Part shown: positions 8,147 to 13,528 of the stretch, in pieces
Position numbering within the stretch: the first letter of the stretch is position 1
Layout of the letters: each line of letters begins with the position of its first letter
Source: a bacterium
Lineage (GTDB): Bacteria; Cyanobacteriota; Vampirovibrionia; Gastranaerophilales; Gastranaerophilaceae
Length of the DNA: 33,559 nucleotides
Direction: 5' to 3'
NCBI GenBank assembly: GCA_017633675.1
Contig: JAGBOW010000013.1
Location: 1-33,559 of the forward strand
The notes under the pieces: generated by a model
Database searches by the model: none
Told to the model about the DNA's origin: nothing
The model's input: only the letters and a program-made list of their open reading frames with translations
Translations under genes and position numbers: made by a program

Positions 8147-11100
8147 ATGTTACAGGAAGCATCAAGAGCACTAAATTCGGCATTTAATAACAGTTTTATA
8201 AAAAAATTAAGCCAGTATCTTCACGATTGCGTAAGGGAAGAAGTTAAAAGTTCGACTTTCAGAAACCTCAAAGGGGACAAAGATAACAAATGGATTTTTC
8301 TTGAAGGTGAAGAAAAGTTGTTTTCTAATACTGACGATTATTTATCATTGGACGGAAGTAACCCGAAATTAACCGAATTAATGATTCAGAGCGATCTTGG
8401 TGCAAAAGACAAATATTTGATTTATGGTTATCTGTTTTTGGTCGGAAAAAGTTCCAAAACAAAGAAACAGAATGAATTTTTAACCCCGCTTTTGTATATG
8501 CCGTGTAAACTGGAACGCAACGGAGTAAATATAAACTGTTTTAAACTGGAAGAAATGCTTTCATTAAACACAGGTGCACTTACTGCATTGATGAGCAAAC
8601 ATGATGATGAAGATGAAGTTGATTTATTGTTGGAGGGAATATTGGACGTTGTTCCCGATTTACCGATTACAAAAGAAAAATTAGACATCTTTTTAACAAC
8701 TTTAAAATCTCTTGTTCCTGATTTGGAAATTGCCGAAAATATAGGTGATTTTAAAGAAGATGACAATATTTCAAAATCAAAGGATTTTTATAAAGAAAAA
8801 ATTGACGGTGAAAATTTAGACGAAATTATTGAGGAAGAAGAAAGAGAGCAGGAAAAACAAAAAGTAAAACTTGAAAAAGTCGGGTTAACCTATCAAAGCG
8901 CAATTATTTTAACAAAAAGACCGTCTGTAACAGCAGGTGTTCTGCACGAACTTACCCAAATTGCCGAAAAACCGTCAGGAATTTATCGTGAAACTGCTCT
9001 GAGTATAATTAATGAAGAATACGCACAGAGCAGAGAAAAATCTGTTCCCGTAAAAGATTTGAACAAAATAACCGATTTTTATCCGATTACTCCGCTATCT
9101 TTAAGTGACAGCCAGTTACAGGTGGTTAAAAATATCGATAACAGCAAGTTTGTAGCCGTTCAAGGACCTCCCGGAACCGGTAAATCTCAAACTATCGTGA
9201 ATTTAGTTTCTCACTTGGTTGCGAACGGAAAAACCGTCCTTGTGGCTTCACGCATGGATAAAGCTGTTGATGTTGTTGCGGAAAGATTAAATGAGCTTGG
9301 TGCAAGCCATATGGCACTTCGTGCAGGTCGTTTGAATTATCAAAGACAGTTGAGTGAGGAATTAAACAACCTCTTATCAAATAACAGTGCGCTTGATGAA
9401 GGTGTTGAAGATATTATGCTTGTCGACACAAAAGACATGAAAGACCATCTTGATTTATTAAAAAATCTTGAAAATAAGTCTGAAAATATTATTAAACTCG
9501 AAAAAGACTGGCACGATAAACTTTTAGAAGTTGAGGAACAGGAAAAAGTTGTCGGTGAAAGATTTTTTATTAAAACATCACTCAAAAAAGGTGAAATTGA
9601 TATAATTTCAGGCATTATAAAAATTTTGGAAGATAATATAGAAAAAGCAGGATTTTTCGCTAAAATAGCCAATTTTGCAAGTTTAAATCAGTTAAAAAAA
9701 ATATTAAATCTGAAAGATTTTGAAGTGAATTACGAAAATTTAGGCAAATTAAAGCAGGAACTTGAATTTTCAACACTTGAATGGTCTTTGAGAAAGATTG
9801 AATCCGATATCCAAAAAATCGGAAATCTCCACATGCTCTCCGAACAAATCAGGACAATGAAACGCAAACAGAAAACTCTTGCGGTAAATATATTGAAAAG
9901 CAAACGAAGAGAAGCTTTAAAAGAACTTCTTCGAGATGAAAACAAACGCAGAAGATTAAAAATTCACTCAAAATCACTTATAACAAACAGAAAACGGCTG
10001 CAAAATACAATCCTTGAAGATGAAGATTTTAAACCGCTTTTAGAGGCATTTCCCTGCTGGTGCGTTACGACTTATGCGGTTTCTGATTCTCTGCCTTTGA
10101 AACCGGGAATGTTTGATGTTGCAATTATTGATGAGGCATCTCAATGCGATATCGCAAGCTGTTTTCCGATACTTTTCAGGGCAAAACGTGCAGTAATCGT
10201 GGGTGATGACAAACAATTACCTCATCTTTCATTCTTGGAAAAAGCCAAAGAACAATCTTTCCTGAGCCAGTATAATATTCCCGAAAAATACCAATTGATT
10301 TGGAGGTTCAGGACAAATTCAATGTTCGATTTGGCGGATTATTATTCAATGAATTCCGTTATGCTTGATGAACATTTCAGAAGTTTACCGCCGATAATCA
10401 ATTTTTCTAACCACGAATTTTACAATGACAGAATTCGTGTGATGAGAAAAGATAATGGAGAGGACAAAGTTTTAGAACTTGTCGAAGTATTGGACGGCAA
10501 AGTTGATTTTGATGCGACAAGAAATTTGCCCGAAATTGAGGCATTAGTAAAAAGATTACACGAAATAATTATAGAAGATGAACGCAAAAACCCCGACAAT
10601 CCTGTTTCTGTCGGTATAATTTCACCGTTCAGAGCGCAGGTGGAACAGTTGAAAGTTTCTGTTTCAAAAGTTTTATCGGATTATATGATTAAAAAACATC
10701 AGATAGAAATAGGTACGGCACATACGTTTCAGGGTGATGAACGTGATATTATGATGATTTCATGGGCAATTGCCGATAACAGCTTTACTCAAAGTTTGAT
10801 ATTTATGCAAAAACCGAACTTGTTTAATGTCGCAATAACAAGGGGCAGAAATAAGGTTATAAATTTTGTTTCCCGTAACCCGAGAGAGTTGCCCGAAGGG
10901 CATTTCAGAAACTATGTTTCTTATATGCAGGAATACCAAAACAAAAAAGATGCCGTTTTGTCCGGTGAAATTGATGAAAATATTTACAAAAACCAGTTTG
11001 AACGTGAAGTTGCCGAAAAAATCAGGGAATTGGATCATAAAGTATCGGCAGGCACGGATATTGCAGGTTTAAGTGCGGATTTGTTTGTTGACGACAAATT

Positions 11101-11266
11101 TGTTATAGAAATTGACGGTGTTGAAGACAAAGTTAAGTCAAATATTTCAAACATGAAAAAACAAGCAATATTAGAGCGTTCCGGTTATAAAGTAAAACGC
11201 ATAACTTACCGTGAATGGCAATATTCACCGAAGGCATGTTTGGATAGAATTTTATTAGAGGGTTAG
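8147..11266 (+). CDS. Large SF1 helicase (UPF1/Dna2-like) with C-terminal restriction-type nuclease domain
   Basis: A 1039-residue protein. The N-terminal ~300 residues resemble DUF4011-like regions of big helicases (YLIYGYLFLVG...LTPLLYMPCKLER) and include an acidic linker. The SF1 motor follows: Walker A 'VQGPPGTGKS' near residue 338, a long helical insertion (about 420-620), Walker B 'IIDEASQCD' near 662, 'IVGDDKQLPH', motif V-like 'GTAHTFQGDERDIMM' and motif VI 'NVAITRGRNKV'. The last ~90 residues (from FEREVAEKIRELDH) fold like a PD-(D/E)xK/Vsr-DUF559 nuclease: SADLFV and FVIEIDG supply acidic residues, followed by a helix and 'KVKRITYREW'. AGGAG is 5 nt before the ATG. Similar helicase-nuclease fusions occur in phage defence and DNA repair; which applies here is open. 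Confidence 0.88.
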   Translation: MLQEASRALNSAFNNSFIKKLSQYLHDCVREEVKSSTFRNLKGDKDNKWIFLEGEEKLFSNTDDYLSLDGSNPKLTELMIQSDLGAKDKYLIYGYLFLVGKSSKTKKQNEFLTPLLYMPCKLERNGVNINCFKLEEMLSLNTGALTALMSKHDDEDEVDLLLEGILDVVPDLPITKEKLDIFLTTLKSLVPDLEIAENIGDFKEDDNISKSKDFYKEKIDGENLDEIIEEEEREQEKQKVKLEKVGLTYQSAIILTKRPSVTAGVLHELTQIAEKPSGIYRETALSIINEEYAQSREKSVPVKDLNKITDFYPITPLSLSDSQLQVVKNIDNSKFVAVQGPPGTGKSQTIVNLVSHLVANGKTVLVASRMDKAVDVVAERLNELGASHMALRAGRLNYQRQLSEELNNLLSNNSALDEGVEDIMLVDTKDMKDHLDLLKNLENKSENIIKLEKDWHDKLLEVEEQEKVVGERFFIKTSLKKGEIDIISGIIKILEDNIEKAGFFAKIANFASLNQLKKILNLKDFEVNYENLGKLKQELEFSTLEWSLRKIESDIQKIGNLHMLSEQIRTMKRKQKTLAVNILKSKRREALKELLRDENKRRRLKIHSKSLITNRKRLQNTILEDEDFKPLLEAFPCWCVTTYAVSDSLPLKPGMFDVAIIDEASQCDIASCFPILFRAKRAVIVGDDKQLPHLSFLEKAKEQSFLSQYNIPEKYQLIWRFRTNSMFDLADYYSMNSVMLDEHFRSLPPIINFSNHEFYNDRIRVMRKDNGEDKVLELVEVLDGKVDFDATRNLPEIEALVKRLHEIIIEDERKNPDNPVSVGIISPFRAQVEQLKVSVSKVLSDYMIKKHQIEIGTAHTFQGDERDIMMISWAIADNSFTQSLIFMQKPNLFNVAITRGRNKVINFVSRNPRELPEGHFRNYVSYMQEYQNKKDAVLSGEIDENIYKNQFEREVAEKIRELDHKVSAGTDIAGLSADLFVDDKFVIEIDGVEDKVKSNISNMKKQAILERSGYKVKRITYREWQYSPKACLDRILLEG

Positions 11267-11335
11267 ATGAGTAGATGAATAGATGATTAGTCTTTTAACG
11301 TAAATAGCTAATCCTCTGTTCATCTATTCATCTAA
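11263..11335. repeat. Inverted pair of period-8 arrays after the helicase gene
   Basis: The left arm (11263-11290) is three octamers TTAGATGA, GTAGATGA, ATAGATGA plus TTAG. The right arm (11308-11335) is its near-perfect reverse complement (28 nt, few mismatches) with a 17-nt loop. The helicase stop codon (TAG, 11264-11266) lies in the first unit. The right arm ends 1 bp before the -35 box of the ncRNA promoter. It may act as a terminator-like cruciform. Confidence 0.75.
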
Positions 11336-11336
11336 T

Positions 11337-11365
11337 TTGACAATATTAATAATATGTCATAAAAT
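11337..11365 (+). promoter_or_regulatory. Near-consensus sigma-70 promoter of the structured RNA
   Basis: Perfect -35 TTGACA (11337-11342), exactly 17 bp of spacer and -10 TAAAAT (11360-11365). It is the best promoter in the window and drives no protein gene. The predicted start is about 11372, the first base of GTAGGGTA. Confidence 0.8.
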
Positions 11366-11371
11366 TGTTTT

Positions 11372-11572
11372 GTAGGGTACGCAAACCAACCCCGTTACAC
11401 ACAATTTTCGTAGAAATTGAACGGAAGCAGGTACCAACTATGGTAAAGCAAATAATAATGCTATTACTGGCATTCTCTATAGCAGTAATAGCATTAAATC
11501 TTAAGTCGTAGGGTATGAAGAAATCCTTGGGAACTACCACTTAAATATTTCTCAAGGATACCCTGCATTTAT
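11372..11572 (+). ncRNA. Candidate structured small RNA of about 200 nt
   Basis: No convincing ORF in any frame, but dense secondary structure. H1: CCGTT/AACGG plus CAATTT/AAATTG with a 5-nt bulge (11392-11424). H2: TACCA/TGGTA (11432-11445). H3: a perfect 13-bp stem, AATGCTATTACTG/CAGTAATAGCATT (11457-11495). H4: GTAGGGTA (11508-11515) with TACCCTGC (11559-11566), enclosing TCCTTG/CAAGGA. The 5' end at the predicted start site is also GTAGGGTA (11372-11379), so the 3' strand TACCCTGC can close either the whole molecule or only H4. An A/T tail (ATTTATATTATTT) follows. Size and end-to-end closing stem are reminiscent of 6S RNA, but the side hairpins are not typical and I recognise no riboswitch, SRP, RNase P or tmRNA consensus. 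Confidence 0.65.
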
Positions 11573-11603
11573 ATTATTTACCATGTTTCATATTTTGTCA
11601 ACC

Positions 11604-11893: not shown

Positions 11894-12055
11894 ATGGTAA
11901 AGAAATCATTAAGAGCAATCGGTGGCAGTTACGGAATTATAATTCCCAAAATTTACCTTGAAGAAATGGGGATTAATCCTGTTTTACATGACGTCGAACT
12001 TGAATTGAAAGACAAAATTCTACACGTAAAAAAATCTGAAAAAACAGATAAATAA
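11894..12055 (+). CDS. AbrB/MazE-like DNA-binding protein (53 aa)
   Basis: A 53-codon gene with GAGG 4 nt before the ATG. The product, starting MVKKSLRAIGGSYGIIIPKI, matches the swapped-hairpin AbrB fold: the 'R.iG.S.gi.IPK.yle..gi' signature, then 'DVELELKDKILHVKK' strands. Such proteins act as transition-state regulators or as antitoxins (MazE, SpoVT types) that bind their own promoter. No toxin gene follows on the same strand; the only close partner is the divergent broken ORF at 11604-11798. It lies directly before the proposed origin region. Confidence 0.75.
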   Translation: MVKKSLRAIGGSYGIIIPKIYLEEMGINPVLHDVELELKDKILHVKKSEKTDK

Positions 12056-12391: not shown

Positions 12392-13528
12392 ATGAAATTT
12401 GTTGTTAAGAAAGAAGATTTATATAACGGTATAAAAATTGTAGAAAGAGCTACATCCGTAAAAGCATTACAGCCTGTTTTGATGAATATTTTGCTGGAAA
12501 CCGTTGATACGGGAAAAATCAAACTTGTTGCAACAGACCTTGATTATACGGTTATAGCAGAAGTTGATGCGCAGGTGGAAGAACAGGGAAAAATTACACT
12601 TCCTTCAAAAACTCTGAACGAAATAGTTTCAAAACTTGGTGATAAATTAATTACCTTTAATATGAATGAAGGTCAAACAACGGTTAATATTACCTGTCAA
12701 AAATCAGAATTTGATATTATAGGTATTTCAGCATCAGAATTTCCTCAAGAATTTACCAATATAAATCTTGAGGATAAAGAAGGTTTTGAAATTGAAATAA
12801 GACCGTTGGTAAAAGCAGTTAAAAAAGCAGGTTTTGCGGCTGCAAGTTTTGAAACAAGCAATCTTTTATCAGGTATTGTTTGCGATATATCTTCATCTGT
12901 TATGGAAATTGCATCTACTGACGGAAATAGATTAGCTCGTGACAGAGAAAATATTGACAACAAAGATAATCATTCAAAACAATTGATTATTCCTTCTAAA
13001 ACGCTTAATGAATTTATTAAAATAAGTTCATTTATAGATGATGAATCAGCAAAAATATATACGGAAGGTTCTAAAATAATTATAAAAACTGAAAGAACAA
13101 CTACGATTTCCAGATTATTGGAAGGCCAATATCCGAAATATAATCAATTAATTCCTCAGGAAAGTCCAAAAACAGCAACAGTAAAAGTTTCTCAACTTAT
13201 ATCGGCATTGGAACGTGTTTCTATCATGGTTGATGAAAAAACAAGTATTGTTAAGTTTGAATTTAGCAATAATAATTTAAAACTGAATGCAGATACTCCG
13301 GATTCCGGAAAGTCTGAGGAAAATATTGATATTGATTATACAGATGAAGAACTAACAATTGCATTTAATTACAAATTTGTTCTTGATGCATTGAAACATA
13401 TTGATTCGGAAAATATCAAAATCGGTTTGAATACACCTTTATCCGCTACAATGTTCAGACCTGAAAATGAAGAAGATTTTGTTTGCCTGATTATGCCGGT
13501 GCAGATAAGAACAAAGGATTTATCTTAA
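12392..13528 (+). CDS. dnaN: DNA polymerase III beta subunit (sliding clamp)
   Basis: A 378-residue protein with the three tandem clamp domains of bacterial DnaN: N-terminal 'MKFVVKKEDLYNGIKIVERA', middle domain beginning near 'GFEIEIRPLVKAVKKAGFAAA', and C-terminal end 'CLIMPVQIRT', which is the conserved 'liMP.r' terminus lining the partner-binding pocket. It forms the ring dimer that tethers polymerase to DNA. GAGGGAG lies 8 nt before the ATG. The gene follows the candidate oriC and overlaps the convergent membrane-protein gene by 9 bp (13520-13528), with no terminator between them. Confidence 0.97.
   Translation: MKFVVKKEDLYNGIKIVERATSVKALQPVLMNILLETVDTGKIKLVATDLDYTVIAEVDAQVEEQGKITLPSKTLNEIVSKLGDKLITFNMNEGQTTVNITCQKSEFDIIGISASEFPQEFTNINLEDKEGFEIEIRPLVKAVKKAGFAAASFETSNLLSGIVCDISSSVMEIASTDGNRLARDRENIDNKDNHSKQLIIPSKTLNEFIKISSFIDDESAKIYTEGSKIIIKTERTTTISRLLEGQYPKYNQLIPQESPKTATVKVSQLISALERVSIMVDEKTSIVKFEFSNNNLKLNADTPDSGKSEENIDIDYTDEELTIAFNYKFVLDALKHIDSENIKIGLNTPLSATMFRPENEEDFVCLIMPVQIRTKDLS

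What the first reader, a model, noticed from the sequence alone, without database searches (positions are those of the whole stretch)
11337..11572. Strongly promoted, highly structured RNA of unknown class
The best promoter in the window (TTGACA-N17-TAAAAT) drives about 200 nt without a plausible ORF but with four nested or adjacent stems, including a perfect 13-bp hairpin. The first bases at the predicted start (GTAGGGTA) pair with the 3' end (TACCCTGC). The size and closing stem recall 6S RNA; the internal hairpins do not. It could be a divergent 6S RNA or an undescribed family.
Basis: partly seen in the sequence, partly recalled or inferred. Interest (0 to 1): 0.85.

Follow-up and report, generated by a model that had tools for sequence, protein, structure and literature searches.

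The report
Candidate RNA-controlled toxic peptide family
The structured RNA is the messenger for a tiny membrane-spanning peptide paired with an opposing antisense RNA, the layout of a self-toxin held in check by RNA, and it belongs to a large, apparently undescribed family found in gut relatives of cyanobacteria.

Summary
The promoter and structured RNA are real, but the RNA is neither 6S-like nor non-coding. It carries a 23-codon ORF (11440-11511, MVKQIIMLLLAFSIAVIALNLKS). Facing it is an equally strong minus-strand promoter (11601-11573). Together they form a convergent mRNA/antisense-RNA module, best read as a type I toxin-antitoxin locus. About 60 related elements were collected, mostly from Candidatus Gastranaerophilales genomes, often several per genome, sometimes in tandem arrays. 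They share both promoters, Shine-Dalgarno, start codon, a 5'UTR stem and a 5'-3' closing stem with compensatory changes, while the hydrophobic peptide varies widely. The 'perfect hairpin' lies inside the ORF and looks like the antisense RNA's terminator: it is stronger than synonymous recodings, with its T-run on the antisense side. A model of the 5'UTR alone found new loci in other genera; all 20 checked had an antisense promoter-like site at the predicted place and 19 had the ORF. No Rfam, Pfam or NCBIfam family matches. Transcription, repression and toxicity are untested. The window copy has a weakened Shine-Dalgarno (GCAGG for GGAGG) and may be decaying. Verdict: new variant of a known kind.

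The parts
11337..11365 (+). promoter of the peptide mRNA (TTGACA-N17-TAAAAT)
   Evidence: relatives have a promoter-like pair at the same distance upstream of the 5' GTAGGG (mean score 8.8 vs 7.0 for shuffled upstream sequence)
11372..11580 (+). inferred peptide ('toxin') mRNA, about 200 nt, start at GTAGGG, end in the U-rich stretch after the 3' hairpin (ends inferred)
   Evidence: no transcript data
11372..11379 (+). 5' GTAGGGTA; pairs with the 3' end (TACCCTGC); repeated at the stop codon
   Evidence: pairs kept in 97% and 88% of cells, with double changes; predicted P>0.5 in 43 of 49 elements
11392..11424 (+). 5'UTR stem-loop just upstream of the Shine-Dalgarno
   Evidence: all five pairs of the lower stem show compensatory changes
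11427..11431 (+). Shine-Dalgarno-like GCAGG, weakened from the family's GGAGG
   Evidence: alignments A1/A2
11440..11511 (+). ORF of the candidate toxin, MVKQIIMLLLAFSIAVIALNLKS* (one hydrophobic, probably transmembrane, helix)
11447..11496 (-). hairpin within the ORF (11456-11496) plus T-rich tail (11455-11447 on the minus strand): inferred intrinsic terminator of the antisense RNA
   Evidence: more stable than synonymous recodings; T-run on the antisense side; compensatory changes
11508..11515 (+). second GTAGGGTA, overlapping the TAG stop; alternative partner of the 3' end
   Evidence: 92% paired across 45 elements
11508..11566 (+). 3' hairpin region of the mRNA and, on the other strand, 5' hairpin of the antisense RNA
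11447..11566 (-). inferred antisense RNA ('antitoxin'), about 120 nt, complementary to the 3' UTR and most of the ORF; it stops short of the Shine-Dalgarno
   Evidence: promoter and terminator positions; no transcript data
11573..11601 (-). promoter of the antisense RNA, TTGACA-N17-AATAAT, with conserved GTAAATAATATAAATG; best-conserved part of the element
   Evidence: 13 copies of TTGACA-N-GTAAATAAT in the genome, 0 of the reversed pattern; invariant columns in A1 (these partly reflect how the elements were collected)

Best explanation
The locus is a chromosomal type I toxin-antitoxin-like module. The plus-strand RNA is the mRNA of a 23-aa membrane peptide. A strong promoter facing it makes an antisense RNA of about 120 nt that covers the 3' UTR and most of the ORF and ends at an intrinsic terminator whose hairpin is encoded by the peptide's own codons. 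The antisense RNA pairs with the mRNA and lowers peptide synthesis, by duplex formation and degradation, by blocked elongation, or by refolding. The mRNA's 5' GTAGGG pairs with its 3' end, giving a closed, presumably stable and poorly translated primary transcript, as in AapA/IsoA and par. If the antisense RNA (assumed shorter-lived) is lost, the peptide is made and acts on the cell's own membrane. Shown from sequence: the two promoters, ORF, Shine-Dalgarno, embedded terminator, closing stem and covariation, across many genomes. Inferred: transcription, repression by pairing, toxicity.
For: Convergent promoters. 47 of 60 elements carry Shine-Dalgarno + start + 20-32 codons + hydrophobic core, 0.16 expected from shuffles; start codon mostly 157-166 nt from the antisense -35, range 145-177 with one peptide class at about 190. 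ORF hairpin beats synonymous recodings, mean z -2.9, 45 of 51 elements with at most 10 of 200 recodings as good; the 9 nt after it on the antisense side hold 5.9 T on average against 3.4 on the other side, p 1.8e-9. Covariation in 5'UTR stem, ORF hairpin and closing stem. Out-of-sample test: loci found by a 5'UTR-only model had an antisense promoter-like site in 20 of 20 and the ORF in 19 of 20. Multi-copy and tandem arrays, plus degenerate copies, as for other chromosomal type I systems. The architecture matches published type I features.
Against: No RNA-seq, toxicity or repression data. Codon statistics alone do not prove coding: pN/pS is 0.78 and confounded by the hairpin. In the models the Shine-Dalgarno is only partly hidden (mean unpaired 0.35) and the 3' end does not change that, so the 5'-3' stem does not obviously block the ribosome site. 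The T-run after the ORF hairpin may partly come from A-rich N-terminal codons. The window copy's Shine-Dalgarno is weakened. Some promoter-selected sites have no qualifying ORF: decayed copies or other promoters.
Confidence: 0.82

Rival explanations
1. A small, non-toxic membrane peptide (regulator of a transporter or of the membrane) whose expression is tuned by a cis-antisense RNA.
For: The same data support any hydrophobic peptide under antisense control; peptides differ strongly between elements while hydrophobicity is kept.
Against: Many copies per genome with unrelated peptides, tandem arrays and decayed copies fit toxins better than a specific regulator.
Confidence: 0.12
2. A divergent 6S RNA or other non-coding regulatory RNA.
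For: About 200 nt, closed by a 5'-3' stem with covariation.
Against: No Rfam match at gathering score; conserved ORF with Shine-Dalgarno; opposing promoter; several copies per genome and patchy presence.
Confidence: 0.03
3. A selfish repeat (MITE-like mobile element) whose promoters and hairpins serve its own spread.
For: Multi-copy, tandem arrays about 320 nt apart, inverted GTAGGG/CCCTAC ends, mostly different flanks.
Against: ORF, Shine-Dalgarno, near-fixed promoter spacing and compensatory changes point to function of the RNAs; no exact match of the antisense promoter in viral contigs and no peptide match in phages or plasmids.
Confidence: 0.03

Closest known systems
par/Fst (RNA I/RNA II) of Gram-positive bacteria
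   Same: Convergent promoters, short membrane peptide, antisense RNA, repeats transcribed in opposite directions, an mRNA helix closing the extreme 5' end (PMC7472228).
   Different: Peptide has no Fst match; the antisense terminator lies inside the ORF rather than in a shared bidirectional terminator; the repeat is at the 5' end and stop codon, not around the Shine-Dalgarno.
AapA/IsoA of Helicobacter
   Same: Several chromosomal copies, peptide of about 20-30 aa, cis-antisense RNA of about 80-120 nt, 5'-3' long-distance interaction in the mRNA (PMC6733600).
   Different: Different phylum; predicted Shine-Dalgarno hiding does not depend on the 3' end here. Peptide similarity to AapA was not tested.
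TxpA/RatA and Hol_Tox peptides of Firmicutes
   Same: Short hydrophobic peptide with an antisense RNA; in TxpA/RatA the duplex is cut by RNase III.
   Different: No Hol_Tox (PF16935) match to these peptides.
MsoT1/MsoA1 of Microcystis (Cyanobacteria)
   Same: Candidate type I system in the same phylum; antisense RNA at the 3' end of the ORF and 3' UTR (PMC12390103).
   Different: 63-aa toxin with two predicted helices; the family described here was found in the sampled phylum only in one family.
Ldr/Rdl and Ibs/Sib of enterobacteria (from general knowledge)
   Same: Tandem and multi-copy arrays of tiny hydrophobic toxin genes with antisense RNAs.
   Different: Different sequences and antisense placement; not tested here.

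Membership tests
Type I toxin-antitoxin system (functional class) | short hydrophobic peptide encoded on a structured mRNA | tested here: met
   ORF 11440-11511 and relatives; fold z -4.9; mRNA stability not testable
Type I toxin-antitoxin system (functional class) | antisense RNA with its own promoter overlapping the toxin mRNA | tested here: met
   conserved promoter and embedded terminator, by sequence only
Type I toxin-antitoxin system (functional class) | untranslatable primary transcript (hidden ribosome site or 5'-3' interaction) | tested here: inconclusive
   5'-3' stem covaries; Shine-Dalgarno partly hidden but independent of the 3' end
Type I toxin-antitoxin system (functional class) | peptide is toxic and the antisense RNA relieves it | not testable with these tools
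   needs expression tests
Fst/Ldr superfamily | Fst toxin profile PF13955 | tested here: not met
Fst/Ldr superfamily | shared bidirectional terminator downstream of the toxin ORF | tested here: not met
   inferred antisense terminator lies within the ORF
Hol_Tox (PF16935) / TxpA-like | Hol_Tox profile match | tested here: not met
AapA/IsoA | 5'-3' long-distance interaction in the toxin mRNA | tested here: met
AapA/IsoA | AapA-like peptide sequence | not tested
   no AapA profile was compared
6S RNA (RF00013 and relatives) | Rfam covariance-model match | tested here: not met

The most novel reading that the evidence does not exclude
A previously undescribed superfamily of type I toxin-antitoxin modules, confined to one family of Gastranaerophilales, in which the same nucleotides encode the peptide's membrane helix and the antisense RNA's transcription terminator, and in which the RNA frame is conserved while the peptide is repeatedly replaced.
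Probability: 0.6. Interest if true: 0.72.

Novelty: new variant of a known kind. Interest (0 to 1): 0.62.

Why it matters
Type I systems have been reported from few phyla, and a 2025 paper presents the first cyanobacterial candidate (PMC12390103). A many-copied family in non-photosynthetic gut relatives of cyanobacteria would widen that range. It would also give a large natural data set for how an RNA control frame stays fixed while the peptide changes, and a testable case of a terminator overprinted on a coding sequence.

Tried and rejected
6S RNA and all other Rfam families: no match. First named-genome scan with an exact 23-base core: no hit, too strict. Coding test by pN/pS: 0.78, uninformative because the hairpin constrains synonymous sites. 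A first window-based terminator finder failed on many elements and was replaced. RNAalifold on the mixed alignments found few pairs, so the structure was tested pair by pair. Shine-Dalgarno hiding by the 3' end: not supported. Pfam, NCBIfam and PHROGs for the peptides: nothing significant. Phages, plasmids, viral contigs: no match. The broad promoter pattern alone overstates the range, since it also hits single conserved promoters (e.g. L105), so the 5'UTR model was used for distribution.

Full report
What is there. The RNA from about 11372 folds far better than shuffles (-57.9 kcal/mol, z -4.9). Two things were missed. There is an ORF of 23 codons at 11440-11511, and a second, equally strong promoter at 11601-11573 points back at it from the minus strand. 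The 'perfect hairpin' (14 pairs) lies inside that ORF.

Relatives. Similar DNA occurs in many genomes of the same genus, often more than once. Reading the hits showed the same layout each time: GTAGGG start, a 5'UTR hairpin, GGAGG, a start codon, a tiny hydrophobic ORF, and an opposing promoter TTGACA-N17-AATAAT. The opposing promoter is the best-conserved part; its pattern occurs 13 times in the window's own genome and the reversed pattern not at all. A scan of named genomes gave 39 loci; most with an informative title are Candidatus Gastranaerophilales or Melainabacteria, so the window is most likely from that group (two loci carry a Muribaculaceae title).

The peptide. Of 60 distinct elements collected by the opposing promoter, 47 carry a Shine-Dalgarno, start codon, 20-32 codons and a hydrophobic core, against 0.16 expected from shuffled sequence. 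Start codons lie mostly 157-166 nt from the antisense -35. Peptides fall into several classes, for example M(V/I)DKIIMLLLAFSIAVIALKL, MTKQQIKTAIIAVIAVLKFILALL, MRKAIIKDALALIGHLLQIISLFL and MENFNIALFLIFLIVFIIKNDTHQLR. No Pfam or NCBIfam family matches, and six-frame searches of the genome with the Fst and Hol_Tox profiles do not pick out this ORF. pN/pS is uninformative.

The embedded terminator. Folding the antisense of each ORF gives a hairpin more stable than synonymous recodings (mean z -2.9; 45 of 51 elements with at most 10 of 200 recodings as good). It persists when the peptide class changes, and a T-run follows it on the antisense side (5.9 against 3.4 T in 9 nt, p 1.8e-9). The simplest reading is that the antisense RNA ends there, giving about 120 nt covering the 3' UTR and most of the ORF. 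A-rich N-terminal codons may contribute to the T-run.

The mRNA fold. On an alignment of 45 elements, the lower 5'UTR stem shows compensatory changes at all five pairs, and the 5'-3' closing stem is kept in 97% and 88% of cells with double changes; four of the five whole-structure measures exceed every shuffle, the fifth (number of pair types) does not. The repeat at the stop codon can pair with the same 3' end (92%). The closing stem is predicted with probability above 0.5 in 43 of 49 mRNAs, but the Shine-Dalgarno's accessibility does not depend on it. So the closing stem is well supported, its effect on translation is not.

Out-of-sample test. A covariance model of the 5'UTR alone was run on 194 genomes of the phylum. 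All 44 genomes with matches belong to the window's own family and span 15 genera. Twenty of the new loci were read: 20 had a promoter-like site on the opposite strand at about the predicted distance (one of them weak, L133), and 19 had the ORF starting at the predicted codon. The exception (L127) is a decayed copy, and a few of the twenty had been seen before in other records (e.g. L127 as L094). Tandem arrays of up to seven promoters about 320 nt apart occur.

Interpretation. Convergent promoters, a tiny membrane peptide, a cis-antisense RNA and a 5'-3' closed mRNA are published marks of type I toxin-antitoxin loci (PMC12390103, PMC7472228, PMC6733600). It works like par/Fst and AapA/IsoA but is not a member of Fst or Hol_Tox by the tests made. 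The step from 'antisense-controlled membrane peptide' to 'toxin' is inferred. The window copy has GCAGG where the family has GGAGG, so it may be weakly expressed or decaying. I found no paper on type I systems in Melainabacteria in the library searched; subscription papers and small-protein catalogues were not searchable.

Noticed in passing
window 11894-12055 (+): Small ORF beginning MVKKSLRAIGGSYGIIIPK, which reads like an AbrB/MazE-type antitoxin or regulator, just downstream of the element and before dnaN (12392-13528).
   Followed up: no
window 8147-11266 (+): 1039-aa superfamily 1 helicase with a C-terminal MTES_1575 nuclease domain, a possible defence protein, directly upstream.
   Followed up: no
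window 11264-11337: Long inverted repeat built of ATGAGTAGATGAATAGATGA-like units between the helicase gene and the promoter; only one other near copy of the unit in the genome.
   Followed up: partly
L110 (G119:C28), L111, L112, L114: Tandem arrays of two to seven of these modules about 320 nt apart, with near-identical promoters and diverged peptides.
   Followed up: partly
L079, L081, L094/L127, L046: Apparently decayed copies: lost stop with a poly-G tract in the leader, lost start or leader, frameshift. The poly-G tract could also be a phase-variable switch.
   Followed up: no
L136, L137, L139, L113: A separate 32-aa peptide class ending KEKAPELELLELFLNS (or near it) under the same leader and antisense promoter, with the -35 about 190 nt from the start codon; less hydrophobic and strikingly conserved at its C terminus.
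   Followed up: no
L105 (G000:C92): Same promoter pattern without a peptide module; near-identical single copies occur in other genera of the family, so it is probably the promoter of a conserved gene.
   Followed up: no
L066, L076: Two loci titled Muribaculaceae carry the module; most likely a mis-titled or contaminated assembly.
   Followed up: no
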